Positions 3,861 through 58,284 of a DNA stretch of 64,000 bases are shown here, piece after piece. Position 1 is the first letter of the stretch. Each line of letters begins with the position of its first letter. A program made the translations under genes and the position numbers. The stretch is from Polytrichum commune (lineage: Eukaryota; Streptophyta; Polytrichopsida; Polytrichales; Polytrichaceae). The DNA lies in assembly GCA_950295325.1 (NCBI GenBank), contig OX485806.1, positions 47,301,169 to 47,365,168 of the forward strand, given 5' to 3'. The notes below the pieces were generated by a model that saw nothing but the letters and a program-made list of their open reading frames with translations, did no database searches and was not told the DNA's origin.

Positions 3861-4218
3861 ACTGTCCAGATGGTAGAGAAGTCAAGGCTGGTCTCAAGCA
3901 TGCCATGTACTAACCGCGTTGACACTGATCACATAAGAGCATAGTAACCGCTCCTTTCTTCTCTCCACATACAAAACATGAAAGACCCTCTAGCACGACA
4001 GCCAGTTCAGGATGAACTGTACCTTCAATAGGTAGATGACATGGGGCACAGTTTTTGGAATGCTCGCGACATTCCTTGCCATCCTTGCCTTCCAACAACA
4101 ACAAATCACTTCGCAACACGTCTTTCACCCAAAGGATATTGCGCCCCGCCCTGATATCCAATGTCATAGGCGCCTCACGTTGGAGATAAACATAATTCCC
4201 TTGTTGGAATGTCCGCAA
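3861..4218 (-). pseudogene. B1 integrase tail with PHD finger
   Basis: The tail frame (3910-4218) carries CFVCGEKKG...LLCDQCQRG, the first half of a C4HC3 PHD finger. After a stop in place of the expected Trp, the DNA goes on to encode MACLRP and LPSGQ before it is cut by fusion to family A at about 3858. PHD fingers bind histone H3 tails. At this position, after integrase, many plant gypsy elements carry a chromodomain for targeting, so a targeting role is inferred. An upstream Cys/His cluster (CREHSKNCAPCH) may bind another zinc. Confidence 0.78.
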
Positions 4219-4224
4219 CTGAGA

Positions 4225-5200
4225 TCAGTAAGCACCACTGTGAATGCGTGCATAACGCAATGTGTCATGGTGTTGAGCAATGGACAAATTCTCCATGGCC
4301 ATAGGCATGGCCTTTTGGAAGAATTGAGCCCGCTCCTGCAAACACTCTGCCCAAATGTTTGGGTCATCCAAGTCCACAACAGGAGCTAGTTTTTCCTGAA
4401 TGGAACTCGGGAGTATAGGCTCACGTCCATACAACAACTTATACGGGCTGTAGGACGCCAAAGAAGCATGCCTACTAAATTGATAGCCCATAGAAATCCA
4501 AGGCAATATGAGGTCCCAATCCCGATGGCTTCCCCGAAGTAATCCATACTTCGTCAAGCCACGCTTAATTGTCTGAACAACCCGTTCAGCCAAGCCATCT
4601 GCCTCCGGATGATCCCGAGAGGTGGTGCGGTGATCTATGAGCGCCTTAGTGCACAACTCCTCAAAAACACCGAGGAACTCCCTCCCGTGGTCCATCAATA
4701 CCTCGGCCGGTACTCCAAAACGTGCCAACACACGATCCCAAAAAGGCGGCCGCGGCCAACTCTGCAGAGTTTTGGGGTAAAGCAACAAGCTCCATCCACT
4801 TGCTAAAATGCTCCACCATCACCAAAATGTACTTTGCTCCACATGGTGTAACCGCCAACGGTCCTGCAAAGTCCAGCGACCAACGGTAGCCCAATCCCAT
4901 GATAGGCAAGGGTTGTAATTGAGGTGACAAGGTGTTAAAACCAAACCTGATCCGATCACAAACTTCACACCTCCCAACATAAACAGCTACCTGTTGATAC
5001 ATGCCAGTCCACCAATATTGGCCACGCAACATCGAATGTGTCTTGCGTATGCCAAAATGCCCAAGTTCCCCGTGCACTTGTCGCACCAAGGAGGCCCTCT
5101 GATCCGGCCTAGGGACAATGCACCTTGTTCCATCCGACCACAATCGAAATAACAAACCGTTCTCCCAACGGAACTTTGTTATTCGATGTCCAATCCTATT
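4225..5200 (-). pseudogene. B1 integrase
   Basis: An HHCC zinc module is present (VHGELGHFG with two His, then RCEVCDR with two Cys). The catalytic core has its first Asp in WSLDFAGPL, its second in VLMDHGREFLG, and its Glu in DGLAERVVQ. The three acidic residues of the DDE triad are all readable. A frameshift near 4740-4790, between the first and second Asp, breaks the frame. The C-terminal part continues into a linker with a CREHSKNCAPCH motif and then the PHD finger. Confidence 0.85.
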
Positions 5201-5399
5201 CCTTTCCATTGCCGATGTCGACGAAGGAAAGGTCCCTTGCTGAAGCTTATGCAATACAGGAAGATCCTCCCATATATCTGCAATAGCTTGAGGTCGATCA
5301 GTCTCATCATCCGAGCCCTGTATCGGAACCTCAACAGCCGCACCAAAAAATAAAGTGAGGTAAGCAGCCGCGTGCCAACCTGGAACCACCTCTCGATCA

Positions 5400-5842
5400 C
5401 AATCTCCATGCCACTTGGCCCTAGTCAAGTCCTCATCTGAAGGACTTGGATTGTTTGAGAGTCCATCTGCATCCAAGTTGGTAATCCCAGCACGATGCAC
5501 CACCTCAAAGTCGTACACCTGGAGCAATAAAACCCACTTGCCGAGCTTGCTAGTAAGTTTATCCGACTCCATGAGCCACTGTAATGGCTGATGGTCAGTC
5601 ACCAAAGTAAAGTGTTGACCATAAAAATATGGCTGGAAATGAGCAATAGCCCACACCGCCACGAATGTTTCTCCCTCATAAGATGAATAATTGGCTTCCG
5701 CCGTATTGTTGCTTCGCGACGCATAAGCAACAACATGCTCCTGGCCAAAGTCATCATTTTGAGTGAGAACTGCTTCCAAACCCAATGAGCTCCAGTCCAT
5801 ATGCAACTGGAAAGATTTGGAAACATCAGGACGTTGAAGCAC
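5400..5842 (-). pseudogene. B1 RNase H domain
   Basis: The minus frame has the three acidic positions of gypsy RNase H: MDWSSLGLEAVL, SSYEGETFVAVWA and VTDHQPLQWLM. The post-RNase H motif VVHRAGITNLDADGLS follows. The frame is open and runs into integrase. It degrades the RNA strand of the RNA/DNA hybrid during reverse transcription. Confidence 0.85.
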
Positions 5843-5919
5843 TGGAGCTGTACCCAGTTTCTACTTCAATATCTCAAATGCATGTTTGTTGCTCACGACC
5901 CCAAGTCCAAAGTTGGTCC

Positions 5920-6900
5920 TTACTCGTGAGAATGATGAGCAGTTTGGCAATCAAGCTCAAGATCTTGACGAATCTCCGGTAGTAATTCGCTAAGCCCAAG
6001 AAAACACGAAGTCTTGGCACATCGACCGGTGCCGGAACCTCCTGGAACAATCATATGCCCCAGATATGCCAGCCGGTCATGGAAAAACTTGCACTTGCCG
6101 TGGTGCAAGCGCAATCCCCACCGCTACAACCGTTCAAAAACGGCTTGCAGATGCCTCACATGCTCTTGTGGTGTGCTGCTGAAGATGATCACATCGTCTA
6201 TGTAACACCGAGCAAAGGGCAAGCCAAAGAGGACCTGGTCCATCACCCTTTGGAACTCAGCAGGTGCATTCTTGAGGCCAAATGGAAGAAACTTCCAATG
6301 GTAAAGTTGATCCTTCCCATCTTGATCAACTCCCCAGAATGCCGTATTCATCCGGTCTCCCACAAGTAATGGGAGCTGGTGATAGCCGGATCTTAAATCC
6401 AACGTGCTAAAGACTTGAGCAAATCCGAGGGCATCAAACAACTCCTCTGGGATTGGCATGGGATACCAATCCGACTTGGTCTTCCGGTTAACTGGACGGT
6501 AATCCCCGCACATCCGCTTCTCCGTCCAATTGCCAAAGATATCCTTCTTCGATGGCATAACCGTAGCACAAGCATACTCCCCGTTGGACAGTTCGATTAA
6601 CCTTGCTGCCAAGAGCTCTTGGCAACCCACCTGAACGCCAATCCGCTCGGAAACACTGAGCCTTTAAGGTCTCCAAAAAATGGGATGGTCGTCCTCCAAC
6701 TGAATGTGGATGGGTTTTCTTTTATAACCTTCAAGATCTTGAAGGCTAAAAGAAAAACACCTACGGTACGTGCGAATAAATGCTCGTACTTTCCGTGCCT
6801 CAGCACCAGTGAAATGAGGGCCCAATTCCAATGGCCAATCATCAAACTCTGTGGTCTCCCTCTCCACTAGAAGAGAGCCACCTGGTGCTGGCACGGACTC
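5920..6900 (-). pseudogene. B1 reverse transcriptase
   Basis: Clear gypsy RT blocks on the minus strand: CGDYRPVNRKT, then STLDLRSGYHQL, then LPFGLKNAPAEFQRVMD. The catalytic YIDD box is at 6193-6204, and the thumb region LHHGKCKFFHDRLAYLGHMI follows. The N-terminal part (about 6664-6894) and the palm (6124-6630) lie in different frames. A small deletion after LGHMIVPGG removes part of the connection present in B2. The palm catalytic residues are intact, but the gene is not continuous. Confidence 0.88.
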
Positions 6901-6909
6901 TAACTGCTA
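6901..6909 (-). promoter_or_regulatory. B1 conserved TAG with readthrough context (TAG CAG TTA)
   Basis: On the minus strand the linker after the methyltransferase ends with TAG at 6907-6909, followed by CAG TTA and then the RT region in the same frame. This fits the TMV-type leaky-stop consensus UAG CAR YYA. The same stop at the same place occurs in B2 and B3. Readthrough itself is inferred. Confidence 0.6.
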
Positions 6910-7189: not shown

Positions 7190-8159
7190 CCATGATGCCG
7201 TTGCAATGCAAGGCATAAACCAACAGTCCACACCATGGTATGAAGATCCATGGCTTGGCCCAACACGAAGCGTCGTTGACCCTCAGAAAGGCCAGGAGCT
7301 GCAGTGGTGCCAGTGCGGAATCCCATGGCCCGCTTTCGTTCGTCAGCCAATGGTTCGGTGTGGATTTTGGTGTTAGCATCCCACACCATACCCAGCCCTC
7401 GATCGCGGAAGGCGAATGACTGTGGAAACGTCATAAACGTGGGAAATGCCCGCTGTGGTGCCACCACTTTGTTGACCAATGCCAACGGGGGTAAATCATC
7501 TCAAACAACCGGCAAAGAGGTCTAGTTTGGATCCAAGATGTCATCCACCTTTTGATCAAAAGGTGGAGGCACTGCAGAAAATGCTACAGCTAAGGTAGAT
7601 GACGATGTGAGGTTGGTCCAAATCCACCGAGGCCGGTGGGCATAAGAACCAATGCTCACGGCATCCACAAAAATGGGGTCTCCAAGGTGTTGACAAACAT
7701 AATGACCTCCTTCCAATACCTTGTCCCGAGAGTCTCCCAACAAAGGTACATTCTCGAAGATATACCCTGGAGGGGAAGGTTGGTGGGTAACCACCACTGC
7801 ATAAGCCGGATGAGGTCCCAGAAAATGCTAGACCTTGGATCCTCTAAACCTCGGCCTGTTCTAGCACGTGAGTGGCCTTGGCATGGCCAACCCGCAACCA
7901 CCATATCCACCGGACCCAAGTGTTGTAAGTCGGCCTCACTGATGAGTGTAACATCACGAGGGAGACGTGAAAAACACCCACGAATGGCACTCGGGTGTAA
8001 CTGCTGGGGGTACAATACCATCATGTGAAGATGGTGACAAGCCACACGGGTGGACACCTAAGAGTTGTCCACATAGACATATTGTTTGGCCGTGAGGCCA
8101 ACCTCCAATACGGCTGCTAATCATGTGCCGATGCCCCCAAACAACTCCACCAAAGTAAT
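7190..8159 (-). pseudogene. B1 C5-cytosine DNA methyltransferase domain inside the retrotransposon
   Basis: The motifs of a DNMT/Dcm-type enzyme occur in order. Motif I (SAM binding) is LVELFGGIGT at about 8124-8153. Motif IV is GWPCQGHS, with the catalytic Cys of PCQ at 7878-7886. Motif VI is FENV at about 7747-7758. Motif VIII is HRPRW at about 7624-7638. A motif IX-like DERKRAMGF lies at about 7318-7347 and a motif X-like LGQAMD at 7246-7263. The region is about 320 residues, a usual catalytic-domain length, with a short target-recognition stretch between VIII and IX. In the family the enzyme transfers methyl from SAM to cytosine C5. Defects: Gly to TGA just after motif I (8121-8123), a frameshift near 7790, and a stop at 7141. 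The key residues of motifs IV and VI remain intact. Confidence 0.88.
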
Positions 8160-9272
8160 CCCAGTGTTTGGAGGGCGCCACAAAATAGGACGTGCCAACG
8201 TGGACGGAGTATCCGGTATAAATGGTGTGGTAAAACCGAGAGAGAGGACAATGTCCTCACACCTTCGGAATAAGCCGGCGGAATCACGCCACGGTGGTAA
8301 AGGGTCCTTGGGGTGGCATATCAAGGCATTCTTAGGTGCCATCTCTCGTGGGTCTTCAACACTCCCCATGAATGCCAGTGACTCCTCCAACAATGCGGAA
8401 CCATAATGCAAAGTATCCACAATAGCGCCACATCCAAAGACCATGGATAATGGTGCTATGGTCGCGGCCGCTGCGAATGCCACAGGAATAAGCTCCCTGC
8501 GGCCGTCCCCAGCTGACCAACCTGGTCGGATCCACGCCTCCTCAGTCCAGTTGTCCAAACCAAAGCCAAAAGGGTAAAATGCTTGCTGACCAACTAAAAT
8601 GTCAGAGTTGGTCGCATCCGTCACTGCATACCTAAGAAGAAGAAGAGCAGGTGGATCTCCAGGTTTCACTCGGAAGCTAAGCTGTAATAGCCCCCGTGTA
8701 TAACCTGTGGCCCGCTCCACGTGACCAACGGATGTGACAATGGTGAATGGACAGGGAGCCAACTCCTCGGCCGCCAATCCCAAGTCCTAGGCAAGCCTCT
8801 TGCTGATCATAACTGGTTGTGCCCCTGAATCCATCATCACACAACGGGGAGCAACTCGAGTGGCATTGCCCTCAGTCCGACTGACCACCAAAATGTCGGT
8901 ATCATTCACCATACGCATGACACCGGGTTGAATGCCGCGGTGCTCATGTGGAGGTCTAGCAACTACATCATACACATAAGCTGCTCCCGCAGATTGTGGT
9001 GAGTCATAAGACGTGGTCGGCTCCCTGTCATCTAAGGTGTGTGCGTCAAAAGATGCAATGGTCTCTACGGCAAACTTTGCTTGCCGTTTGGCCACTTCAT
9101 CGGGGTCTTCAGAAGCAAGGATGTCCGTGGTGGCTTGGGCCACGGTCAGAGAAGGTGAGGATGCCTTCCCTTCCAAAATCCTACCTGCTAAGTGGAAAAC
9201 CTTAGCAGGTTGGAACTCTGGCGATGACCACTCCATTACCGTGAACAAAGGGGTGTGCAACACTTTGGACAT
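8160..9272 (-). pseudogene. B1 aspartic protease region
   Basis: The minus frame contains VMMDSGAQPVMI; the DSG at 8823-8831 is the catalytic motif of retroviral-type aspartic proteases. A second-strand motif, DILVGQQAFYP, follows about 75 residues later, as in pepsin-like retroviral folds. A single stop (TAG, about 8787) splits the domain. The frame then runs on, without a break, into the methyltransferase motif I. That shows protease and methyltransferase belonged to one polyprotein. Confidence 0.8.
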
Positions 9273-9672
9273 TGCCCCGAGCTCGTAAGCTATCCACAGA
9301 CTTCCTTGTGGTCGAGGGCATGGCTCGTGACACGGATTGAGCCCGTGTCACCGCTGCGGAACTCAACATTTCTCCCGAGGCTCCGAACATATAATAATTC
9401 GGAGTGGAAGAACTAGCCTTAGCGGCGGAGGAGGATGGTGAGTCTAAGATTTGGCCGGATGACGCTAAACTTTTGAACCTCTCCTCCAATGCTCCAATCT
9501 TCGCCTCCAACGTCTTCTCCCGATCAAAAGAAGGACGTTTCTCTGGAGGGAGAATGAAGCAGTTCTCCACCGTGTGATTGTTCCGCCCACAATGGGAACA
9601 CGTCAACTGCTTGGATAAATGTTTACCCGCCCCCTTCGTCAAATCCTTCGCGGGAACAAATGGTTTCCACTT
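9202..9672 (-). pseudogene. B1 Gag C-terminal part with one CCHC zinc knuckle
   Basis: Residues encoded at about 9559-9600 form CSHCGRNNHTVENC, a C-x2-C-x4-H-x4-C zinc knuckle typical of retroviral and retrotransposon nucleocapsid. A predicted helical stretch follows (EKTLEAKIGALEERFKSLA) and then a Ser/Ala-rich tail. The first knuckle and the capsid part seen in B2 are absent because a family D LTR interrupts the gene at 9673. A frameshift separates this part from the protease frame that starts near 9272. Confidence 0.8.
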
Positions 9673-9673
9673 G

Positions 9674-10394
9674 TGAGCCCAAATTAGGTGGCCACATGTG
9701 GTTTTAAGCCGTGGAGTTTTTAAAACTTGGGTTTGGAATTCCTTTTAATTATTCAAAACATAAAAAGAGTGGTACATTGAAATTTAATTTAGATTAAGCG
9801 TTAGGCTAGATTGTTAGAAGTTAGTGCTAAAAGTGTGAAGTTGAGATTTTACAAATTAGTTAGTTGGATCAATAGGATTTAGGCCTTAAGGCTTTACGTG
9901 CTGGGTCAATTGTATTAGAATGGGCATTGTTAGTGTTCATATTAGGGGGGGGGGGCACTGTACCCTAGCAATTTACGGATCCAGGGGCCGGGATTTTCTG
10001 GTATGCTCGGGAGGCTGGTTTTTTACTCTCTCTGGAAGGAGCTATGTGGAGGGGCGCCACTGCAAGAGGTCGGGAGATGGTTGCATATTCACAGTGCAGG
10101 GAAGGTTACATAGGGGGGATAGGCTGAGACGGAAGCAATGTGGCTAATCGACGGCCTAGAGTGCTGGTTCGGTGAGCTCGGAACCAGAAATGGGGAAGGG
10201 GATTTACTCGATTGCCGCTCGGACATAGAAACATGAGAATGCGTGCAAAAGAAATTGAATCGACTGAGAATGGTTTGGCTGCCGAGGGTGCAAAAAAATC
10301 TCTGAGGGCTGGCGGCCACAATGTGGGAAGCATTCTGGGTAGTTGCCTAAGAATTACTTCGGAAATCAGGAACAGGGGAAGGCGGTAAGGAGTT
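9674..10394 (+). mobile_element. Family D LTR fragment (copy D0)
   Basis: It begins TGTGAGCCCAAATTAGGTGGCCACATGTG, matching the start of the D copy at 30899 (TGTGAGCCCAAAAGGGTGCCCACAT), and shares CATAAAAAGAGTG some 90 bp in. It interrupts the B1 gag gene. A G-run lies at about 9946-9956. The far end is not a recognisable D terminus; the sequence gives way to the 106-bp repeat at 10395. I found no duplication of the flank, so it is probably truncated. No coding frame is supported. Confidence 0.6.
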
Positions 10395-10500
10395 TGTCGT
10401 GTAAATACCGATCGTGTGTCACTGCAGCTCGAATACCAACCACCACTAACAAACAACACTAAAACATTGCAAGGTCACACATGAACAACACATCTCGACA
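10395..10500 (+). repeat. 106-bp direct repeat, left copy
   Basis: Begins TGTCGTGTAAATACCG and ends CATCTCGACA. It matches 12220-12325 with only a few differences. The ends (TGTCG...CGACA) are inverted, like a very short LTR. It flanks the C1/D1 block on its left. Confidence 0.8.
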
Positions 10501-12217
10501 GAAGAGGAAGAGAGTAGAACACTCATAAGAGCTCTAAATCTCTCTTCAAATGCATACAATTAGTCAAGCCATCTCTCACTCCACCAAAGGAGAATCCAAG
10601 AGTGTAAGTAGAGGAAGAAGAACTCAAGATTTATTGCAAAATCATGCAATCTATACCTCACATAAGCTCTCTCCACACACTAACTCACAAGACTTGTGTG
10701 AGGCCAAACCTACCACCCTTAAGCGTCCTAGTCCGGGTAATAGGTTTGGAGATCACATGTGTAACATAACAACTTGTGGTAACATGGGATGTACATTCTA
10801 CCTTGATGAGTTTCTAACTTAATTCAAATCATGACATTTTATTAGTGTGAACCTTGTGGATAGACACATCCTTGGCTTTTTCCAGAGTCCACCCCACTGC
10901 CTTTGCCACGCATGCCTTCAATGATTTCCCCTTTGCAACTTTGGTTCTGGCTATCGATTTTTCACTGGTGCATAAACCTCGTTGAGGCTATAATGTGTTG
11001 ATTCCATGAGGCTCATAAGTTTTAATACAAGTGTTGAAAAACACTTATATAACTTAACATTACCTCATTTTCCACAAGTCCCTCACAAATCCTTCCCAAT
11101 TTCATATCATAATGCAACCACTAAACCAACTAGCCTAACTCTCTAGCCTAACTAATTAGTCTAATTAACCATCCTCACTAACTAGTAATAACTTAGCTTG
11201 TCGATCTAGCTTAGATTCGGGAGTGTACAACTAGTTGGAACTAGATTCCTCCTTAACCCATTCGCTAAATCTAACTGGCTCTACTTAACCCAGCCGCTAG
11301 GCCTAACTAGCCTCCCTCTTCCACCCAGCCGCTAAGCCTAACTGCCTCCAACTTCAAACCAGCAGCTAGCCTAAGTGGCCTCCCCCTTAAAGCCTACAAG
11401 GTTGAATGCTTTAAATCTAACATGAATCTAGATGCTACAATTTTAAATGTCATAATTCTAAACACTATAAATTTAAATGATATAAGTGTAAATTCTATAA
11501 GTTGAACACAACGAGCTAAGCTCTAAATGCCTCAAACCAAAGACTACTCCTAACAAGTATCAACTAACTTCAAGGCTAATTAGTCTTGGTTCTTCACCTT
11601 GAGACCTTGCACACACACGTGCTTCTTTCTTGCTTCCCACACATCCACACTCATAACACGTGGGGTGCCAAGGAGCACCAAAAAAAAAAAAAAAAAAAAA
11701 AAAAGTGAGGATTATATAGTGCGGTGAAAGGGAGTAGGTGAGCACCCCCAAGGCTCAAGATAAACCTTTTGATCATTTCCTACTTTGTAGGCTCTCATCC
11801 TATCATTTAAGCCTTCAACTCTTAAACCAACAACATAGATCCTAATTCAAACATTTAACTCAAGGAGCCACCCTTGGTTCACCACACACTATGCTCACCT
11901 AATTAAGGAACTTTCTTCACACCGCTAAACTTCTAATCAACCTAAGGTCTAAACATAACTTCACTCAAGCCTCACTCTTTTTATATTTTTGTGAATAATC
12001 ATAAAACATAAAAACATAACTTCTAATAGTTTCAAAGGGTTAAGAACACATGTGGGCACCATTTTGGGCTCACAACTTGACTTGGCAAAAATGCCAAGCC
12101 AAGGAGGAGCTCCTCACTTAGGAGCCTCACTTTCCAAAACTAAGGTTCATCCATCCAACTCTAAATGGATGAAGCCCAACGGATAAGGTGCGGCTGCCGA
12201 CATCGCATACCATGACA
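10501..12217 (-). repeat. Repeat C copy C1 (presumed family B LTR), split by D1
   Basis: Two arms, 10501-10696 and 12075-12217, join to the same sequence that is continuous at 21008-21341. Shared blocks include AGAGCTCTAAATCTCTCTTCAAATGC, GGAGAATCCAAGAGTGTAAGTA, CCAAGCCAAGGA and GCATACCRTGACA. On the minus strand it begins TGTCATGG, as an LTR start. It lies between B1 and B2 and may be the remains of a shared LTR. Confidence 0.6.
10697..12074 (-). mobile_element. Solo LTR of family D (copy D1), 1378 bp, 5-bp TSD ACTTG
   Basis: Begins TGTGAGGCC and ends GGGCTCACA. It is flanked on both sides by ACTTG (10692-10696 and 12075-12079), and removing it with one ACTTG restores the continuous C repeat seen elsewhere. 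This is a clean insertion signature. An A-run of about 24 bases lies at 11681-11704. No coding capacity is recognised, so I call it a solo LTR or short non-autonomous element. It is in minus orientation relative to the copy at 30899. Confidence 0.85.
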
Positions 12218-12219
12218 GC

Positions 12220-12325
12220 TGTCGTGTAAATACCGATCGTGTGTCACTTCAGCTCGAGTACCAACCACCACTAACAAACAACACTAAAACATAGCAAGGT
12301 CACACATGAACAACACATCTCGTCA
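12220..12325 (+). repeat. 106-bp direct repeat, right copy
   Basis: Near-identical to 10395-10500 but ending CTCGTCA. On the minus strand it starts two bases after the polypurine tract of element B2, exactly where the B2 3' LTR should begin. Its relation to the true B LTR is unresolved. Confidence 0.8.
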
Positions 12326-12327
12326 TG

Positions 12328-12336: not shown

Positions 12337-12969
12337 GCTGACTATGGAGTCCCGCCAAGCAGCTAGGACCCAGTCAATCCAAGGGTATGAATAATGAAAG
12401 ATTGCTCCGCAACCAACTAATGTATCGAACGTCATTCCAAGGACCTGTAGGCTGGGTGCAATGTGAGCCCCATCCTTAATCGCCTCTGATGGTTGGCCAT
12501 CAGATTCCACAGAATTAATTTCACCGCCTTATGTCGATTGCGTTTATAAGCCATAAATCCTCATCTTTCATTTGGGCAGGCACAAGATGATGAAAACTAC
12601 ACATGATCATTAAGGACGATTGGTGGAAGTACCAAGTACCGAAGATCCTCGATAGTGAGGACAACTCCACTGTCCAGATGGTAGAGAAGTCAAGGGTGGC
12701 CTCAAGCATGCCATGAGCCAACCACGTTGACACTGATCACACAAGAGCATAGTAGCCGCTCCTTTCTTCTCTCCACACACAAAACATGGAAGATCCACTG
12801 GCACGACGGCCAGTTCATGATGAACTGTATCCTTAATGGATAGATGACATGGGGCATAGTTTTTGGAATGTTCGCGACATTCCCTGCCATCTTTGCCTTC
12901 CAACAACAACAAATCACTTTGCAGCACGTCTTTCACCCGAAGGATATTGCGCCCCACCTTGACATCCAA
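12337..12969 (-). pseudogene. B2 integrase tail, PHD finger and polyprotein C-terminus
   Basis: The frame 12610-12969 encodes an SH3-like linker and a PHD finger (12652-12786): CFVC, CDQC, then WLMAC where the metal-binding His is Leu, then WSCPHY where the last Cys is Tyr. Two of the eight ligands are therefore lost in this copy, but spacing and the Trp two residues before the seventh ligand (Cys) are kept. After a stop the DNA reads on for about 65 codons in one frame (SDGQPSEAIKDGAHIAP ... WIDWVLAAWRD) to the TAA at 12334. That looks like the native polyprotein end. No function is known for this tail. Confidence 0.75.
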
Positions 12970-13158: not shown

Positions 13159-14178
13159 CTAAATGTTTGGGTCATCCAAGTCCACAACATGAGCTAATTT
13201 TTCCCGAATAGAACTTGGGAGTATAGGCTCACGTCCATACAACAACTGATACGGGCTGTAGGATGCCAAAGAGGCCTGCCTACTAAATCGATAGCCCATA
13301 GCAATCCAAGGCAACATAAGGTCCCAATCCCGGTGGCTTCCCCGAAGTAATCCATACTTCCTCAAGCCACGCTTGGTTGTCTGAACAACCCGTTCAGCCA
13401 AGCCATCTGCCTCCGGATGATCCCGAGAGGTGGTGCGGTGATCTATGAGCGCCTTAGTGCATAACTCCTCAAAAGCACCAAGGAACTCCCTCCTTTGGTT
13501 CGTCAACACCTCAGCCGGTGCTCCAAAACGTGCCAACACACGATCCAAAAAGGCGGCCGCGGCCAACTCTGCAGAGTTTTGGGGTAAAGCAACAAGCTCG
13601 ATCCACTTGCTAAAATGCTCCACCATCACCAAAATGTACTTTGCTCCACATGGTGTAACCGCCAACAGCCCTGCAAAGTCCAACGACCAACGGTAGCCCA
13701 ATCCCATGATAGGTAAGGGTTGTAACTGAGGTGACAAGGTGTTAAAGCTAGACCTGACCCGGTCACAAACTTCACACCTCCCGACATAGGCAGCCACCTG
13801 CTGATACGTGCCAGTCCACCAATATTGGCCACGCAACATCGAATGTGTCTTGCGTATGCCAAAATGCCCAAGTTCCTCGTGCACTTGTCGCACCAAAGAG
13901 GCCCTCTGATCCTGCCTACGAACAATACGCCTTGTCCCATCCGGCCACAATCGAAATAACAAACCGTTCTCCCAATGGAACCTTGTTATTTGATGTCCAA
14001 TCCTGTCCCTTTCTATTACCGATGTAGACAAAGGAAAGGTACCCTGTTGAAGCTTATGCAATACAGGAAGATCCTCCCATATATCTACAATAGCTTGAGG
14101 CCGATCAGTCTCATCATCTGAGCCATGTATCGGAATCTCAACAGATGCACCAGAAAATAAAGTGAGGTAGGCAGCCAC
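13159..14178 (-). pseudogene. B2 integrase
   Basis: An open 339-residue frame. HHCC module: VHEELGHFG and RCEVCDR. The core has its first Asp in WSLDFAGLL. The second catalytic position reads VLTNQRREFLG, where the B1 and B3 copies have VLMD, so the Asp is changed to Asn. The Glu is in DGLAERVVQ. A region needed for the C-terminal domain (YSPYQLLYGREP) follows. The Asp-to-Asn change predicts a dead enzyme although the frame is open. Confidence 0.87.
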
Positions 14179-14199
14179 GTGCCAACCTGGAACCGCCTC

Positions 14200-14743
14200 T
14201 CAATCACAATCTCCATGCCACCTGGCCCCGGTCAAGTCTTCATCTGAAGGACTTGGATTGCGTGAGAGTCCATTTGCATCCATGTTGGTAATCCCAGCAC
14301 GGTGTACCACCTCAAAGTCATACTCTTGGAGCAACAAAACCCACTTGGCAAGCTTGCCAGTAAGCTTATCCGACTCCATGAGCCACCGTAACGGCTGATG
14401 GTCACTCACTAAACTAAAGTGCCGACCAATGAGCAATAGCCCATACTACCGCCAATGCTTCTCCCTCGTAGGATGAATAATTAGCCTCCGCCGTGTTATT
14501 GCTTCGCAAAGCGTAAGCAACAACATACTCCCGGCCAAAATCATCCTTATGAGTGAGAACTGCTCCCAAACCCAATGAACTCCAATCCGTATGCAACTGG
14601 AAGGATTTGGAAACATCCAGACATCGAAGCACTGAAGCCGCACCCAGTTTCTGCTTCAATGTCTCAAATGCTTGTTGCTGCTCACGACCCCAAGTCCAAG
14701 GTTGGTCCTTGCTCGTGAGAATGGTAAGAGGCTTGACGATCAA
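14200..14743 (-). pseudogene. B2 RNase H domain
   Basis: The first half (14414-14743) has TDWSSLGLGAVL and SSYEGEALAVVWA. The second half (14200-14436) has VSDHQPLRWLM and VVHRAGITN. A short internal deletion and frame change, compared with B1, lies near 14430. The catalytic acidic residues are readable. Confidence 0.85.
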
Positions 14744-14761
14744 GCTAAAGTTCTTGACGAA

Positions 14762-15730
14762 TCAACAATAGTAATTCGCCAAGCCCAAGAAAGCACGAAG
14801 TCTCGGCACATCGACCAATGCCGGGATATTCTGCAAGGCGTCCACCTTAGCTTGTTGCACCCCAAGACCTCCTGGAATAATCATATGACCTAGATATGCT
14901 ACTCGGTCATGGAAAAACTTGCACTTGCCATGGTGCAAGCGCAATCCCCACCGCCGTAATCGCTCAAAAATGGCTTAAAGATGTTTTACATGTTCCTGTG
15001 GTGTTTTGCTGAAAATGATTACGTCATCAATATAACACCGAGCAAAAGGCAAGCCAAAGAGAACTTGGTCCATCACTCTCTGAAACTCAACATGCGCATT
15101 CTTGAGGCAAAATGGAAGAAACTTCCAATGGTATAGTTGATCCTTCCCATCATGATTAACTCCCCAAAATGCAGTCTTCACCCGATCTCACGTAAGTAAT
15201 GGGAGTTGGTGATATCCAGATCTCAAGTCCAAGGTGCTAAAGACCCGAGAAAATCCGATGGCATCGAGCAACTCCTCCGGGATTGGCATGGGATACCGAT
15301 CCGACTTGGTCTTCCGATTAACTGGATGGTAATCCCCACACATCCGTTTCTCCGTCCAATTGCCAAAGATATCCTTCTTTGATGGCATAACCGTAGCACA
15401 AGCATACACCCCGTTGGAAAATTCGATTAGCCCTGCTGCCAAGAGCTCTCGGCAACGAGCCTGAATGCCAATTCGCTCGGAAACACTGAGCCTGTAAGGT
15501 CTCCGAAAAATGGGATGATTGTCCTCCAACTGAATGTGAATGGGTTTTCCTTTATAACCTTCAAGATCCTGAAGGCTAAAAGCAAAACATCTACGGTACG
15601 AGCGAATAAATACTCGTACCTTCCGTGCCTCATCACCAGTGAGACGAGGGCCTAATTCAAGTGGCCAATCATCAAACTCTATAGTCTCCCTCTCCACCAA
15701 AAGAGAACCACCTGATGCTGGCACAGACTC
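14762..15730 (-). pseudogene. B2 reverse transcriptase
   Basis: The minus frame from 15724 reads through the N-terminal region (LEGYKGKPIHIQLED) and the fingers (MPSKKDIFGNWTEKRMCGDY) to STLDLRSGYHQLPLL, where a stop intervenes. The palm with YIDDVIIFS follows at about 15020-15050, then another stop, then LHHGKCKFFHDRVAYLGHMI and the connection LRAFLGLANYY. Catalytic residues are present. It is in phase with the methyltransferase linker across the TAG at 15737. Confidence 0.88.
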
Positions 15731-15739
15731 TAATTGCTA
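15731..15739 (-). promoter_or_regulatory. B2 conserved TAG with readthrough context (TAG CAA TTA)
   Basis: The frame carrying motifs IX and X ends with CAG TAG (15737-15739), followed by CAA TTA GAG. The RT frame (15188-15724) is in the same phase directly after it. TAG CAA TTA is exactly the tobacco mosaic virus leaky-stop hexamer context. The domain boundary and conservation in three copies argue against a random stop. Confidence 0.65.
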
Positions 15740-15989: not shown

Positions 15990-16986
15990 TCCTCTGCCCC
16001 CAGAGACAACACTTGGTCACCACGATGCCTTTGCAATGAAAGGCATAAAGCAACAGTCCACACCATGGTATGAAGATCCATGGCGTGGCCCAACACGAAA
16101 CGTCGTTGGCCCTCAGAAAGGTTGGGAGCTGCGGTGGTGCCAGTGTGGAATCCCATAGCACGCTCCCGTTCGTCAGCCATTGGTTCGGTGTGGGTTTTGG
16201 TGTGAACATCCCACACCATACCCGGCCCCTATCGCGGAAAGTGAATGACTGTGGAAACGTCATAAATGTGGGAAATGCCCGCTGTGGTGCCCCCATTTTG
16301 TTGACCAATGCCAACGGGGGTAAATCATCTCGAACAACCGGCAAAAAATTCCGGTTTGGATCCAAGATATCATCCACCTTTTGATCAAAAGGTGGAGGCA
16401 CTGCAGAAAATGCTGCAGCTAAAGTAGATGACGGTGCGAGGTTGGTCCAAATCCACCGAGGCCGGTGGGCATAAGAACCAATGCTCGTGGCATCCACAAA
16501 AATGGGATCTCCAAGGTGTTGACGAACATAATAATCGCCTTCCAACACCTTGTCCCAAGAGTCTCCCAACAAAGGTACATTCTCGAAAATATACCCTGGA
16601 GGGAAAGGTTGGTGGGAAAACCACCACTACATGAGGCGGATGAGGTCCCAAAATATAGTAGACCTGGGATCCTCTAGTCCTCCGCCTGCTCCAGCACGTG
16701 AATGGCCCAGGCATGGTCATCCTGCAATCACCATATCCACTGGACCCAAGTGTCGTAAGTCGGCCTCACTGATGAGTGTGACATCACGAGGGAGACGTGA
16801 AAAACACCCATGAATGGCAGTCGGGTGTAACTGCTGAGGATACAACACCATCAACTGGTGAAGATGATGACGAGGCACACGGGTAAACACTTGAGAGTTG
16901 TCCATATAGACATATCGCTTGACTGTAAGGCCAGCCTCCAATACGGCTGGTAATCCTGTGCCAATGCCCCCAAACAACTCCACCAA
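15990..16986 (-). pseudogene. B2 C5-cytosine DNA methyltransferase domain
   Basis: Motif I LVELFGGIGTGL lies at about 16950-16986. In motif IV the Trp before PC is a TGA stop (16717-16719) and the following codons read PCLGHS (Gln to Leu), so the usual PCQ is damaged. Motif VI FENV and motif VIII HRPRW are intact. After RAFPTFMTFPQSF a one-base loss shifts the frame, and the motif IX-like DERERAMGF and motif X-like LGHAMD then continue in the next frame (15737-16219). The catalytic Cys codon itself remains. Length and motif order match B1 and B3. Confidence 0.86.
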
Positions 16987-16989
16987 AGT

Positions 16990-17904
16990 AATCCCAGTGT
17001 TTGGAGGGCGCCACAAAATGGGGCGTGCCAATGTGGATAGACTGTCCGATATGACTGGTGTGGTAGAACTGAGAGAGTGGAGCATGTCCTCACACTGTTG
17101 GAACACGTTGGAGGAATCACGCCACGGAGGTAGAGGGTCCTTAGGATGGCGTACCAAGGTATGCGTAGGTGCCATCTCTCGTGGGTCTTTAACATCCCCC
17201 ATGAATGCCAATGACTCTTCCAATAATGCGGATCCATAAGGCAATGTATCCACAATAGCACTGCATCCAAAAACCATGGATAATGGTTCAATGGTGGTGG
17301 CCGCTGCAAAGGCCACATGAATAAGTTCCCTACGGCTGTCCCCAGCTGACCAACCTGGTCGGATCCACGCCTCCTCAGACCAGTTGTCCAAACCAAAACC
17401 GAGGGGGTAAAGTGCTTGCTGACCAACTAAAATGTCATAGTTGGTCGCATCCGTCACCGCACACCTGAGAAGAAGAGGTGCAGGTGAATCTCCAGGCTTC
17501 ACTTGGAAGCTAAGCTGTAATGGCTCCCGAGTATAACCAGTGGCCCGTTCCACGTGGCCAATAGATGTGACGATGGTAAATGGGCATGGAGCCAAGTCGT
17601 CGGTTGTCAACCGCAATGCCTGCGCCAACTTTTTGCCGATCATAACAGGTTGTGCTCCTGAATCCATCATCACACACTGTGGAGCAACTCGAATAGGGTT
17701 GCCATTAGCCCGACTGACCATCAAAATGCTAGAATCATTGACCATCCGTACAACGCCAGGTCGAATGCCTCGACGCTCGCGAGCGGGTCGAGCAGCTACA
17801 TCTGAAAGATAAGCTACACCTGCGGAGGCTGGTGAATCATAAAATGAGGTGGGCTCTTGGCCATCTAAGGTGTGTGCCACTCCCGCTAAGGTGATGATGA
17901 CCAT
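16990..17904 (-). pseudogene. B2 aspartic protease and linker
   Basis: An open 395-residue frame (16717-17904) starts near the protease. The catalytic DSG is at 17656-17664, inside VMMDSGAQPVMI. The partner segment DILVGQQALYP follows, then a linker rich in Trp and Pro (EEAWIRPGWSAGD). The same frame then reads straight into methyltransferase motif I with no stop. That is direct proof that protease and methyltransferase were one translation product. Confidence 0.85.
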
Positions 17905-18062
17905 TCCATCGCTGTGAACAAAGGGGTGTGCAACACTTTGGATGCCAAAGTGTGCACCACATCAGTCACCGGATTTGAAGCCTCCAAGCTCGAATGACGA
18001 GCACTAATAGATTCGGAAGCATCAACCAATCCAAAAGACAATGGCAGACGTGCATGGCCAAT

Positions 18063-19597
18063 CTAATCCGCGGGACCATTGTCCCGAACACGTAAGCTGT
18101 CCACAGACTCCCCTGTGGTCGGAGGCGTGCCTCGTGACACCATTTGAGCACGTGTCACCGCCGCGGAACTCACCACTTGTCCTGAAGCTCCGAACATAAA
18201 ATAATCTGGAGTGGATGAACTAGCCTTAGTGCCAGAGGTAGAGGGTGAGTCCAAAATTTGGCTGGATGATGCCAAAGTTTTGAACCTCTCCTCCAACACA
18301 CCAATCTTCGCCTCCAACGTCATTTCCCGTTCGGAAGAAGGACGTTTCTCTGGATGGAGAGCAAAGCAGCTCTCCACTGCGTGATTGTTCCGCCCACAAT
18401 GGGAACACTTCAACTGTTTGGGTAACTGATTACCCGCCCCCTTCGCCAAGCCCTTAGCGGGAACAAGTGGTTTCCGCTTCGGAGCAGTGACGGTCTGGGC
18501 TTGCCTTTGCTTCGAAGGACAATCCTTCTTAGCATGGCCCGCCTGCCCACAAGACCAACAATGCAAGGTCTTGTCCACCTCTGCCTCCGCCAACCCCGCA
18601 GCCGCAACCGGAATCTTCCGAGATTTGCTAGAATCCACTAGCATGGACACCAAATCAGTGGCGCCGTGCTGACACAAAGCACGATCACACTGCTCAACAA
18701 TGGCAAAAACTTCCACAAGTGTCGCTCGGCCACCATGATCCATGATGATCCTGGGCAAAGCCAAATCAATGAGGCGTTTATCAATCTTTGACAAAAACAC
18801 CTTTACCAACTGGGTCTCGGCGAAAACACCTCCAGATTCCCTGGCAAACCTCGCCAACCTCGTGTACATGGTACGAGGTGTGTTATCTTTCTCGCGTCCA
18901 TATTCCTCCTCCAAATGGAGTTGGAATTCCTGCAGAGGATCAAAATCCGGCGGAGCTCCTAAAAAAGCTAATGCCGCCTGGGTAGCCTGGGCATAACGTG
19001 ACAGTGGAAGTATGAGGCTCGAAGTACTTGCTGCAGCGGGAGCAGGACCCGTAGCCCTCGGCTCACCATGAGGAGCTCCCTTCACATCCACCATAGAACC
19101 TCCCTCCGGTACCTTTGACTTAACCTCAGGAATGGCCATCAAACTGGAAGTTGCGCCTTCCTTCAATGCGGACACCAACTCAACCCGAGTCTCCCAGTAC
19201 CGCTCCACTTGGCATCCGTCCATTGCTCATAGATCTGGAGAGCTTCGTGTTCCAAATGCTGTGGTAGAAGCTCGAACGCATACCAATCGTTGAAGTTGGT
19301 ATTGCGTTGACGCTTCTCCCTCATCCGTGTTTTGAATCGAATTTTCCAATATTGCAGGGAAATGGTCCCCGCTCAACCAGAAAATCGGTCCCGGATGGCG
19401 CCTTGCGTCTTCTCCTTCATCTCGTCAAAGGATCCCACCTAAAGGACGTGAGACCGAGTGGCAGTCCCCCACGCCAAAATAGGCTGAAAAGCCTCGTCGG
19501 GTGCTACCACGGGTTCACTGTCCAAAAGGTCCGAAGATCGACCTTGAGATGATGCCGGAGACGGAGAACGATAATGTTGGCTCCGAGTTGTAACCAT
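18063..19597 (-). pseudogene. B2 Gag with two CCHC zinc knuckles
   Basis: The gag frame begins ATG GTT ACA ACT at 19597, and two stops (in the segments after RSHVL and after RFSG) interrupt the N-terminal third. From 19223 the frame is open for 386 residues. The middle has a capsid-like helical region (RTMYTRLARFARESGGVF, then a segment ending IVEQCDRAL). Two zinc knuckles follow: CWSCGQAGHAKKDC (residues 222-235 of the open part) and CSHCGRNNHAVESC (273-286). After them come a short helix and a Ser/Thr-rich tail. The frame ends at TAG 18063. The protease lies in another frame, so an indel or a recoding site separated them. Gag packages the RNA in a virus-like particle. Confidence 0.85.
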
Positions 19598-21341
19598 AAA
19601 CCCACAATGGATTGGTCACTGGAGCCAACAACCTAAACTAATATGGTATTAGGGTAAAGGCAACCTGCCCCTGCAACCACCACCAAATCTTATGGTCTGC
19701 TGGTCATCAATCCAGCCTCACCATAAGAGAATACAAGCACCGCCCACTTGGTGCACATACAAGGGTCTCGTCGGTCATTACTCCGACCTCACCCCCACAA
19801 TACCCTATCACAAACTAGGACAACACAAAAATGGGACAATGTTGGAAAACTTCAACACAACAGCCCGCCACGGGAGAAGGTACCACAACAAAATACAAGG
19901 AACAATGCAATAACAACACTGAATCCTCTTCCCCAAAACAACACTTAAACATAAATTGAAAGCGACCGCGACCAACCGGCACCCGCCTGCGGTTGGTGGT
20001 CAAAATGAGGAGCCCTTGTTGCTTAAGAAAAAGAAATGCTACCTATGCACATCTCTCATCTTCCCACCACAACCTAAGAATCCCTCATCACAAGAATGTT
20101 GGGAATATGTGTTGACAAACACAATTCGACCTTAATAATAATTTATTTTAGGCCGAACGGAATTCCACATGCTACCCAATTCCCAATGGCATTCCCCTCG
20201 GAAATTTCGTACAACACAACCTCCAAATAAGAAATCCCAAATGTTTTTTTTTAATATTTCAGAAGAGCTTAGGTTTTTTTCCTTGTGTCCTTGATTAATG
20301 AGCCCAAGAAATTAACCTCATAGAGAGAAGAGAAAAATTAGAAGTTGAAAGAAAACATGAAATAAATAAATAATTAAATCCGGTTTTTATTAATTAATAT
20401 ATTAATTAATTAAAACAAAATAAAACAAAATAAAAATCTACCTCCGTTAGCAGCGGAATTGGGTAATGTGCGCGCCTGCTACCTTCCTTGGATGTGGTAG
20501 CCGCTAAGGCTCTATCTCCGGAATCATTTCTCAGGCTCCCTCTTCTGGCCTGCTGCCTGCCTGCCATGGCCTGCAGTCTACATGCTCTGGCCTACTGCTG
20601 CCGCGAGCCGCTAGGCACGGCAGCAGGTCCGACAGCAGCAACTGTAGCAGGGACAACAGCAACAGCGACAACAAATACCGTTTTTTTTTTTTTTTTTTTT
20701 GGGTCAAAAACTTGATCCCTTTTGAGGATCAAGAATGCCCCCACAACTTTCACTTCACAAATTCATGCTTATGGGCAACTCATGGCAAGAAATTTCGTGT
20801 AGTATTTAGAGATTTCTCACCACAGTTCAAAATGATGTGTAAACTCCACAAGCACATTTTTTTCTTCTTGTTGCTCCGCTAATCCGCGATGTTTGTCGTT
20901 TTCCACTCCACAATCCCGCCATCACTTGTCCTCATACTCTTTTCTTGAGTGTTACAACTCAAGATTTGAAGAAAAAAAAAAAAGGAGTCATGCATTCTTG
21001 CCAAGTGAGAAGGAAGAGAGTAGAACACTCATAAGAGCTCTAAATCTCTCTTCAAATGCATACAATTAGTCAAGCTATCTCTCACTCCACCAAGGGAGAA
21101 TCCAAGAGTGTAAGTAGAAGGAGAAGAACTCAAGATTTATTGCAAAATCATGCAATCTACACCTCACACAAACTCTCTCCACACACTAACTCACAAGACT
21201 TGACTTGGCAAGAATGCCAAGCCAAGGAAGAGGCTCCTCACTTAGGAGCCTCATTTTTCAAAACTAAGGTTCATCCATCCAACTCTAAATGGATGAAGCC
21301 CAACGGATAAGGTGCGGCCGCCGACGCCGCATACCGTGACA
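19598..21341 (-). repeat. B2 5' leader and repeat C (copy C2), presumed 5' LTR
   Basis: From the gag ATG outward, 19598-20170 is shared with the leader of B4 (23157-23740), including the block around GTTGACAAACACAATTCGA. Farther out comes the C repeat (about 20780-21341), which ends at GCATACCGTGACA; on the minus strand that is a start TGTCACGG. Because both B2 and B4 have gag-leader-C in the same order, C is probably the family LTR. AT-rich low complexity and a T-run (20681-20700) lie between. The LTR/leader boundary and primer site are not resolved. Confidence 0.6.
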
Positions 21342-24145: not shown

Positions 24146-24751
24146 TCATCAACTAAAGTCAAATATATAAAAGTCCACTCTTTCTCTCCGGATTGAAATT
24201 GAAATTGAAATTTTCTATCAACGTTTGAAATATATAAGCAACAAAAGTCAGAAAACAAAGCTCCATAAAATTGAACAAACTCCGGAGAATAATTTCAAGC
24301 TCCACGTCCACCAATTTAATTGTCAAGCTCCAAGTGGGTTTTTTTTCTTGGACTTCAACATAATTCAAAGTGATGTGTAAACTTCACAAGTAAACATCTT
24401 TCTTCTTTTTGCTCCGCAAATCCGCGGTGTTCTCGCTCCGGAACTTCACAACTTTGTAACTTCTTGTCTTCACGCCCTCTCGCGCGTTACATCTCAAGAG
24501 TGAAGAAGAAAACATAAAAAGTGAAACACATTCTTGCCAAGTGAGAAGGAAGAAAGTCAAACACTTATAAGAGCTCTAAATCTCTCTTCAAATGCACACA
24601 ATGAGTCAAGCTATCTTTCACTCCACCACGGGAGAATCCAAGAGTGTAAGTAGGGGGAAAAGAACTCGAGATTTATTGCAACAATATGCAATCTTCACCT
24701 CACACAAGCTCTCTCCACACACTCACTCACAAAATTTGATTTGGCAAGAAT

Positions 24752-25345
24752 CAAGGTTGTCTATTGTGTCGTGACGGAGGCTAATATCAGCATAATGTCG
24801 TGCCGTCACGACACGTATCCGTCACGACATTATGCCGGATGATGTCTTTATCCTGAAGGACTTGAATTTTACCGAATTTTGTGTGTAATTACATTACCCC
24901 ATTTCGGACACGTAGGATGTAAGATGTCCACGTGTGATGACATGTCAGCAAAGTAGAGGTAAAATGGGGGAAAATTTACTAGCGCCCGTCCGCCCCGTTC
25001 CCCCCCCCCGGTCCGTCCCCGTCCGCTCCATTCCCCCCCTCGTCCGCCCCGTTCCCCCCGTACGCCCACCCCCACCCCCGTCCGCCCCACACCCTCCTTA
25101 GTCATATTTTACTACTTTGATTTTAACAAAATGATAAACAGAATGGCAAAATGGTTTACCTGGCGCTAGGCATATCCACGTCCACGTCGGCCTTTTCTGC
25201 CACATAGGACGCCACCTTGGCAAGGTGAGTATTTTACCCACCCTACTAGCTTCCCCCTAGGTTGACCCTACGTGGACCCTATTGTGTCGTGATGGAGGGG
25301 TCCGTCACGACACGACACGTCATGACGTCGGGATAGACAACCCTG
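24752..25345. mobile_element. hAT-like MITE, 594 bp, 8-bp TSD GCAAGAAT
   Basis: Terminal inverted repeats CAAGGTTGTCTAT and, at the far end, the complement CAGGGTTGTCTAT (one mismatch in 13). GCAAGAAT is duplicated on both sides (24744-24751 and 25346-25353), and removal restores the C repeat exactly. An 8-bp duplication and a CAGGG-type end are hAT traits. Sub-terminal copies of GTGTCGTGACGG/CCGTCACGACAC lie near both ends. There is no transposase. The interior has a very C-rich stretch (about 24986-25090). Confidence 0.9.
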
Positions 25346-45555: not shown

Positions 45556-45559
45556 TCCA

Positions 45560-58275: not shown

Positions 58276-58284
58276 TAACTGCTA
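58276..58284 (-). promoter_or_regulatory. B3 conserved TAG with readthrough context (TAG CAG TTA)
   Basis: The linker frame (58282-58716) ends with CAG TAG at 58282-58284, then CAG TTA GAG. RT coding follows in the same phase. Same position as in B1 and B2. Confidence 0.6.

What the first reader, a model, noticed from the sequence alone, without database searches (positions are those of the whole stretch)
7190..8159. Gypsy retrotransposon that carries its own C5-cytosine DNA methyltransferase
Seen: motifs I (FGGIGT), IV (GWPCQGHS), VI (FENV), VIII (RPRW), and IX- and X-like blocks in order, between an aspartic protease (DSG) and an RT. In B2 one open frame of 395 codons covers protease and motif I, so this is a fusion and not a nearby gene. 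Three copies (B1, B2, B3) share the arrangement. Known: DNMTs captured into retrotransposons were reported in dinoflagellates and charophytes (de Mendoza and co-workers, 2018). Inference: the element may methylate its own cDNA or insertion site.
Basis: partly seen in the sequence, partly recalled or inferred. Interest (0 to 1): 0.92.

Follow-up and report, generated by a model that had tools for sequence, protein, structure and literature searches.

The report
Retrotransposon carrying its own DNA methyltransferase
Retrotransposons in this (probably plant) genome carry a DNMT3-type enzyme that can be expected to methylate DNA, and they place it, together with the Gag coat protein, before a conserved stop codon of a leaky type, so that it is probably made in larger amounts than the reverse transcriptase.

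Summary
The window has three decayed minus-strand copies of one element, each with a C5-methyltransferase domain before the reverse transcriptase, DNMT3-like by sequence and, for a 65%-identical relative, by predicted fold. DNMT capture by a Gypsy element with DIRS-like repeats is in print for Klebsormidium (PMC5890265), so the kind is known. Added here: (1) the enzyme lies on the Gag-protease side of an in-frame TAG-CAR-YYA, the tobacco-mosaic-virus type of leaky stop: 79 of 79 sequences where the site was read automatically, of 84 examined; 70 of 72 genome-wide anchors; and an intact relative with 65% identical DNMT. (2) Pol ends in a PHD finger. (3) Repeats run A-coding-B-A-B, yet two copies have 4-bp target duplications. 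(4) 36 of 80 fetched copies are open from motif I to the TAG, with DNMT dN/dS about 0.11 between subfamilies. (5) Relatives occur in liverworts, Sphagnum, Closterium and Tetrabaena. Readthrough and methylation of the element's own cDNA are inference. The window's own copies are dead.

The parts
7200..8162 (-). B1: DNMT3-type C5 methyltransferase domain, broken by stops at 8123, 8060, 7524, 7503 and a frameshift between motifs IV and VI
6907..6909 (-). B1: shared in-frame TAG, context CAT TAG CAG TTA
8400..9347 (-). B1: region with the aspartic protease (CVMMDSGAQPVMI); extent approximate, read from the translation
9202..9744 (-). B1: gag part with a Cys/His (CSHCGRNNHTVENC) motif
   Evidence: by eye
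3913..6906 (-). B1: RT (RVT_1 E 1.3e-20), RNase H (E 2.4e-31), integrase (H2C2 E 2.1e-16; rve in two pieces, below cut-off), start of PHD finger (below cut-off), in broken frames
16030..16992 (-). B2: DNMT domain; motif IV W codon is TGA, second stop TAG at 16629, frameshift near 16228
16717..17961 (-). B2: open frame of 414 codons covering aspartic protease and motif I
   Evidence: protease profiles E 0.005-0.006, 17.7 bits, well below the cut-offs 24.3 and 28.2
18066..19226 (-). B2: gag with CCHC zinc knuckle
   Evidence: E 9e-4, 19.7 bits against cut-off 20.8
15737..15739 (-). B2: shared in-frame TAG, context CAG TAG CAA TTA, in frame with DNMT tail and RT
13159..15736 (-). B2: RT and RNase H (by homology to B1) and integrase (H2C2 E 2.6e-16, rve E 3.7e-11)
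12655..12786 (-). B2: PHD finger after the integrase
   Evidence: PF00628 E 9.3e-9
21007..21341 (-). B2: repeat A1 (about 335 bp, TGTCACGG...CTTCTC)
12220..12325 (-). B2: repeat B, first copy, after a GGGGGG tract
10505..12217 (-). B2: repeat A2 (12217-12069 and 10696-10505), split by a 1.37-kb insertion 10697-12068
10395..10500 (-). B2: repeat B, second copy (96% to the first); end of the B2 element
58579..59532 (-). B3: DNMT domain, broken (EHV for ENV, stops, frameshifts)
58282..58284 (-). B3: shared in-frame TAG, context CAG TAG CAG TTA
59834..60175 (-). B3: repeat A at the 5' end, joined directly to coding sequence (internal deletion)
24536..25480 (-). further 5' repeat A, next to sequence 22167-23744 that matches 18684-20168 at the 5' side of B2; split by an insertion of about 590 bp

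Best explanation
A Ty3/gypsy-type retrotransposon of a probably plant genome, about 10 kb, with the order A repeat - gag (CCHC) - aspartic protease - DNMT3-type methyltransferase - TAG - RT - RNase H - DDE integrase - PHD finger - B - A - B. Shown: the order, the DNMT3-like sequence (and fold, in a relative), copies with open DNMT frames elsewhere in the same genome, the conserved TAG-CAR-YYA in frame between DNMT and RT, purifying selection on DNMT between subfamilies, and 4-bp target duplications in two copies. Inferred: ribosomes mostly stop at the TAG, giving Gag-protease-DNMT, and a minority read through to give the full polyprotein with Pol. The methyltransferase would then be made and packaged at Gag-like rather than Pol-like amounts and would methylate the element's cDNA during or after reverse transcription, before the integrase inserts it. 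The PHD finger probably steers integration by reading a histone tail.
For: DNMT: PF00145; DNMT3A best in PDB by sequence (E 3e-10); the 50 fold matches listed (of 768 with E up to 10) for the AlphaFold model of relative P0001 (65% identical to B2) are all from DNMT3A, 3B or 3C entries, target TM up to 0.83. Stop: 79 of 79 sequences with the site spanned, of 84, match TAGCARYYA, with variation only at the R and Y positions; 70 of 72 genome-wide anchors carry the TAG; relative L030 has a gag-pro-DNMT ORF, TAG CAA TCA, then an in-frame 1047-codon Pol ORF, though its DNMT is only 65% identical to B and 70% to S. In B-type copies the six fixed positions vary in 0 of 38 while flanks differ by 6.8%; 5 of 584 flank windows are as invariant. 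CAR YYA 3' of UAG is reported as essential for TMV readthrough, about 10% in vivo (PMC2754532, passages). Selection: B versus S pN 0.225, pS 0.72, median dN/dS 0.114 for DNMT (243 of 315 pairs with finite dS); 0.050 for RT-RNase H. PHD: (B2).
Against: No expression, readthrough or methylation data exist for this genome. Copies descend from one another, so 79 of 79 is not 79 independent events; only B, S and L030 are well-diverged lineages in which I read the DNA of the site. In S-type copies the site is no more invariant than many windows (76 of 584), because they are young. The codon before the TAG is not the CAA of TMV. Synonymous sites are near saturation between subfamilies (72 of 315 DNMT pairs had no finite dS; none of the S-L030 pairs had), so the dN/dS is rough; within S it is 0.364. 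Transition differences are as frequent at CHG as at CG (0.071 and 0.075 in B pairs, CHH 0.041), so they do not single out the element's own enzyme rather than the host's. The window's B2 has flanks TACT and AACT, not a perfect duplication. Relatives with DNMT fused to Pol or between RNase H and integrase show that Gag-side placement is not needed for such elements in general.
Confidence: 0.7

Rival explanations
1. The enzyme is there to tame the element: it marks new insertions for host silencing, lowering the transposition rate and harm to the host, rather than protecting the cDNA.
For: PMC5890265 raises a slowing of retrotransposition, to the host's benefit, in its Discussion. CG and CHG transitions are raised over CHH in these copies, which suggests that they are or were methylated.
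Against: Selection on the DNMT and at least 76 family copies among 80 fetched show a successful element. The decay pattern can come from host methylation alone.
Confidence: 0.25
2. The shared TAG is a real end of ORF1 and Pol is made in another way (re-initiation or splicing), so the readthrough context is incidental.
For: No readthrough measurement here. The codon 5' of the TAG is CAT, CAG, GAC or AAG and not the CAA of TMV; mutating flanking CAA codons lowered TMV readthrough, though ATG at the 5' codon still allowed it (passages).
Against: RT follows in the same frame in copies where the frame could be followed and in L030. TAG-CAR-YYA is kept in B, S and L030, although the residues on both sides of it differ between the three.
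Confidence: 0.13
3. TAG is a sense codon in this host, so there is one uninterrupted polyprotein.
For: The frame is continuous across the TAG.
Against: Nine of 123 scored places lie in open frames of 1386 codons without any stop, and in L030 the 1162 and 1047 codons on either side contain no TAG except the one at the junction; a reassigned codon would be expected throughout.
Confidence: 0.02
4. The DNMT is a host gene or pseudogene lying next to or inside unrelated retrotransposon fragments.
For: None found.
Against: Open frames join gag, protease and DNMT in P0003, P0009 and L030, the DNMT-TAG-RT junction recurs in 76 of 80 fetched copies, and repeats enclose the DNMT of a B-type and an S-type copy.
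Confidence: 0.01

Closest known systems
KnitGypsy-Dnmt3 of Klebsormidium nitens (de Mendoza and co-workers 2018, PMC5890265; abstract, sections 6, 9, 11 and search passages read)
   Same: Gypsy domain set, Dnmt3-type intronless DNMT, DIRS-like repeat order A-coding-B-A-B, purifying selection on the DNMT.
   Different: There the DNMT is described inside the Pol polyprotein ORF. Here it is on the Gag-protease side of a TAG-CAR-YYA stop. Word searches of the paper's main text found no readthrough, leaky, Gag or PHD. Its sequences and supplements were not available here for direct comparison.
SymbioDIRS-Dnmt3 of Symbiodinium (same paper)
   Same: Dnmt3-type DNMT in a retroelement with A-coding-B-A-B repeats.
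   Different: Symbiodinium elements use a tyrosine recombinase; this one has a DDE integrase (rve) and 4-bp target duplications in two copies.
Type I leaky stop of tobacco mosaic virus (UAG CAR YYA), and rice gypsy element RIRE2, cited as a readthrough candidate (PMC2754532, passages)
   Same: Stop and 3' hexanucleotide fit the consensus; it would separate a more abundant from a less abundant product.
   Different: The upstream product here carries Gag, protease and a DNA methyltransferase; no readthrough has been measured.
Plant chromoviruses (Ty3/gypsy with chromodomain; PMC6317226, passages)
   Same: Ty3/gypsy Pol with a histone-reader-like domain after the integrase.
   Different: The words PHD and methyltransferase do not occur in that survey's main text.

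Membership tests
KnitGypsy-Dnmt3 kind | Dnmt3-type C5 methyltransferase | tested here: met
KnitGypsy-Dnmt3 kind | DIRS-like repeats A-coding-B-A-B with Gypsy domains | tested here: met
   window copy B2 and an S-type copy show both B blocks around A2; for a B-type copy A1, the end of the first B, A2 and the second B were read
KnitGypsy-Dnmt3 kind | DNMT within the Pol polyprotein ORF | tested here: not met
   DNMT lies before a conserved TAG; same frame as Pol but on the Gag-protease side. So filed as a variant of this kind, not as the same element
KnitGypsy-Dnmt3 kind | purifying selection on DNMT (Ka/Ks below 0.2) | tested here: met
   0.114 between B and S, synonymous sites near saturation; but within B 0.228 and within S 0.364, above 0.2
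KnitGypsy-Dnmt3 kind | DNMT sequence groups with the Klebsormidium ones | not testable with these tools
DNMT3 family | catalytic motifs I, IV, VI, VIII, IX, X in unrearranged order | tested here: met
   36 open copies plus L030, motif patterns of my own: I 35, IV 36, VI 35, VIII 35, IX 30, X 34 of 37
DNMT3 family | grouping with DNMT3 in a tree with DNMT1, CMT, DRM, DNMT5 | tested here: inconclusive
   tree has only a DNMT3A fragment on a long branch and distant outgroups; the search for host DNMTs did not complete in nine calls
Ty3/gypsy retrotransposon | CCHC gag, PR, RT, RNase H, then DDE integrase | tested here: met
   RT, RNase H, integrase over cut-off; zinc knuckle just below and protease well below cut-off in the window, but relatives P0008 and P0010 carry PF13650
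Ty3/gypsy retrotransposon | target site duplication of a few bases | tested here: met
   GAAG and GGGC in the two copies fetched for it; window B2 TACT versus AACT, 3 of 4 bases
Ty3/gypsy retrotransposon | two simple LTRs | tested here: not met
   split repeats A ... B A B
Type I UAG readthrough site | UAG followed by CAR YYA, continuous downstream frame | tested here: met
Type I UAG readthrough site | measured readthrough | not testable with these tools
   needs a reporter or proteomics
DIRS elements | tyrosine recombinase | tested here: not met
   rve integrase instead; no recombinase hit in the pieces scanned

The most novel reading that the evidence does not exclude
The element makes its methyltransferase a near-structural component: every Gag chain that ends at the leaky UAG carries a DNMT3 domain, so each particle would hold many copies of a de novo methyltransferase and few polymerases. 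The cDNA would arrive already methylated, and the same element adds a PHD chromatin reader at its integrase. With many open copies in one 408-Mb genome, this could also supply de novo CG methylation to the host.
Probability: 0.35. Interest if true: 0.88.

Novelty: new variant of a known kind. Interest (0 to 1): 0.73.

Why it matters
Why a retrotransposon would carry the enzyme that its host uses to silence transposons is an open question raised in 2018. A conserved leaky-type stop that would set the enzyme's dose at Gag level is a clue that it acts inside particles or on cDNA, and it makes the question testable with a reporter, proteomics and nanopore cDNA sequencing. The many open copies in one genome, and relatives named as liverworts, a Sphagnum moss, Closterium and Tetrabaena, with the DNMT in two positions of the polyprotein, show a wider family than the dinoflagellate and charophyte cases in the papers I read.

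Tried and rejected
Plain LTRs: at first the 343-bp repeat looked like an ordinary LTR. The paired copies showed A-coding-B-A-B instead; what had looked like the 5' end of B1 at 10395-10696 is the B-A-B end of B2. Viral relatives: 29 IMG/VR loci matched the DNMT part only, at 26-58% identity in the best segment, and 98 phage records matched, all under 60% identity and none over 80% of the query; not pursued. Host DNMT3 search: nine requests not answered. Host name: the genome bears none; a search for moss genome papers (listing only) did not settle it, so host identity is left open (plant, perhaps bryophyte, is a guess from the named relatives). Rfam on the window: no match at gathering scores. 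Codon reassignment and adjacent host gene: rejected (see rivals). Rows dropped: 43 of 123 DNMT places were not fetched; 4 of 80 fetched copies (L084, L094, L097, L103) and L030 were not spanned in the automatic site count (L030 was read directly); DNMT stretches under 250 residues were left out of the tree; DNMT pairs without finite dS were left out of the dN/dS medians. My first selection run lost the S-type copies by a too strict motif and was replaced. Claims that points are not in print rest (open-licence papers only, listings); supplements of PMC5890265 were not available.

Full report
Observation. Three minus-strand copies of one element lie in the window: B1 (homology 3861-9678), B2 (10395-21341) and B3 (55892-60175). 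Each has a C5 methyltransferase domain before a reverse transcriptase; B1 and B2 also have the aspartic protease upstream, while B3 is deleted there. The B1 piece passes the PF00145 cut-off (36.7 against 22 bits); the B3 piece is below it (17.4 bits); B2 pieces alone do not match, but B2 read through with X at its stops does (36.4 bits). All three copies are broken by private stops and frameshifts, several of them of the C-to-T or G-to-A kind (kind of change inferred).

Class of enzyme. Against all PDB sequences the domain hits DNMT3A (E 3e-10), then DNMT3B and 3C, then DRM and bacterial enzymes; none of the 50 sequences matched up to E 10 is named DNMT1, CMT or DNMT5. An AlphaFold model of the relative P0001 (65% identical to B2; mean pLDDT 82, most blocks of the first 340 residues above 90) matches entries of DNMT3A, 3B or 3C in all of the 50 rows listed, out of 768 matches with E up to 10; target TM-score up to 0.83 over about 320 columns. 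A profile search, in which only the 7993 best candidates were scored, found 101 proteins, with a gap between E 1.7e-29 and 1.7e-11 that separates this retro-DNMT family from distant PF00145 proteins and one Closterium hit (P0110).

The leaky stop. Of the stops read within these copies only one is shared by all three: TAG at 6909, 15739 and 58284, in the contexts CAT TAG CAG TTA, CAG TAG CAA TTA and CAG TAG CAG TTA, in frame with the DNMT tail and with RT. This is UAG-CAR-YYA, reported as the essential 3' context for readthrough in tobacco mosaic virus (passages of PMC2754532). The window's genome (G000, 407.8 Mb, 64 contigs) gave 123 scored PF00145 places out of 353 candidates; I fetched 80 of the 123. 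They fall into a B type (that of the window) and an S type. The site was spanned in 79 of 84 sequences (80 copies, three window copies, L030): 79 of 79 match TAGCARYYA, as TAGCAATTA 29, TAGCAGTTA 8, TAGCAATCA 1 in B (38 with the window's three), and TAGCAATCA 40, TAGCAACCA 1 in S. In B, flanks differ from the reference copy by 6.8%, the six fixed columns by 0 of 38; 5 of 584 control windows are as invariant. In S the copies are young (2.1%) and 76 of 584 windows are as invariant, so S alone says little. Genome-wide, 72 places carry the 20 bases from CAR onward and 70 of them have TAG before it.

An intact relative. Contig CADCWO010000201.1 (L030), filed under a cyanobacterial MAG and evidently misbinned, was found with a search alignment whose first row is P0003, to which it is 67% identical in the best segment. 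Its DNMT is 65% identical to an open B copy and 70% to an open S copy, its RT-RNase H part 85-87%. Its first ORF holds gag, protease and DNMT and ends AAG TAG CAA TCA; the next ORF is in the same frame, 1047 codons, with RT, RNase H, integrase and PHD finger (domains read from the translation, and a 93% identical protein, P0122, carries these Pfam domains). The contig's two ends repeat each other, so it is a circle in the assembly: either repeats collapsed by the assembler or a real circle; I cannot tell.

Selection and activity. 36 of the 80 fetched copies are open from motif I to the TAG (15 B, 21 S), and 23 of these also have at least 420 open codons of Pol. Between B and S, DNMT pN is 0.225 and pS 0.72 (median dN/dS 0.114 over the 243 of 315 pairs with finite dS); RT-RNase H gives 0.050. 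Within B the DNMT ratio is 0.228 and within S 0.364, as expected when part of the changes came after insertion. Nine of 123 places lie in an open frame of 1386 codons without a stop. One B-type copy at C4:42058366 has A repeats 97.9% identical (7 mismatches in 334); an S-type copy at C6:16192101 has B repeats that are 100% identical over 107 bp.

Ends. Both element types run A-coding-B-A-B. In the S copy the two B blocks enclose A2 and A1 stands alone at the 5' end. In the B copy A1, A2 and the second B were read, with the end of the first B just before A2. Window copy B2 shows the same, with a 1.37-kb insertion in A2. These are DIRS-like split repeats, the arrangement the 2018 paper gives for the Klebsormidium element (letters A and B defined). 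Yet the two copies fetched for it are flanked by 4-bp duplications, GAAG and GGGC, and the element codes a DDE integrase (rve). In window copy B2 the flanking bases are TACT and AACT, perhaps a decayed duplication. Both whole copies are about 10.0 kb (my arithmetic from coordinates).

PHD finger. It follows the integrase in B2 (PF00628 E 9.3e-9) and is cut in B1. In a search with the L030 integrase-PHD part, 117 of the 120 listed relatives (of 332 found) carry PF00628, among them proteins of Volvox, Tetrabaena and Haematococcus; the query contained the finger, so this count is biased towards it. Nearest solved fingers are those of CHD4, Cph2, PHF12, UHRF1, MLL3, KMT2D and KDM5. What mark it reads is not known.

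Family. In the pooled proteins, DNMT lies between protease and RT (as here, with or without a stop) or between RNase H and integrase: 22 proteins RT-RH-DNMT-IN-PHD, 5 RH-DNMT-IN-PHD, 23 DNMT-IN-PHD without a match upstream, and others. In the careful tree (107 rows, 329 columns) the RNase H-DNMT-integrase rows form one side of a branch (43 rows, support 99/97; 42 of that class and one lone DNMT), and the window's clade has 21 rows (99/97). Named holders of DNMT-bearing proteins: Marchantia polymorpha, Closterium, Sphagnum fallax, Calypogeia fissa, and Tetrabaena socialis, whose P0229 lies among the RNase H-DNMT-integrase rows (name, place). PMC6338049 (passages) states that DNA-methylase transposons are not present in land plants such as tracheophytes; by these source names bryophytes have them.

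Mechanism. Most ribosomes should stop at the UAG and make Gag-protease-DNMT; some read on and make Pol (TMV about 10% in vivo, passage of PMC2754532). The DNMT dose then follows Gag, not Pol. A DNMT3-type enzyme packed with the reverse-transcribing genome would most simply methylate the cDNA. De Mendoza and co-workers proposed cDNA methylation and showed that retroelement DNMTs can methylate CG de novo (abstract and Discussion). In this genome, transition differences between copies are raised at CG and CHG alike over CHH, which fits host methylation and neither supports nor excludes the element's own activity.

Verdict. Known kind, new variant.

Noticed in passing
window 2747-3867 and 27239-28359: A second, different gypsy-type element in two inverted fragments (82% identical over 1.1 kb); 27733-29760 holds a 675-codon Pol frame (by eye).
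   Followed up: no
window 10697-12068: A 1.37-kb insertion inside repeat A2 of copy B2, not identified.
   Followed up: no
window 24752-25343: An insertion of about 590 bp with CGTCATGACGTGTCGTGACGG-like ends inside a repeat A.
   Followed up: no
window 32115-32384: Short direct-repeat array with units around 17 and 46 bp.
   Followed up: no
L030, whole contig: Eukaryote-type retrotransposon assembled as a circle and filed in a cyanobacterial MAG (CADCWO010000201.1); P0001 is likewise filed under Candidatus Obscuribacterales.
   Followed up: partly
P0026, P0028, P0029, P0031, P0033, P0035 and about 35 more: Another group has the DNMT between RNase H and integrase, a second position in the polyprotein, in one clade.
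   Followed up: partly
P0030, P0164: Relatives that also carry a G-patch domain (PF01585).
   Followed up: no
L120 and window 12217-12220: The internal B-A junction reads ACGACA-GC-TGTCAC (TGTCAT in the window), as if the two element ends had been joined with two bases between; it may reflect a circular or end-joined intermediate.
   Followed up: no
window 45402-45824: Frame resembling a Ty1/copia RNase H end (by eye).
   Followed up: no
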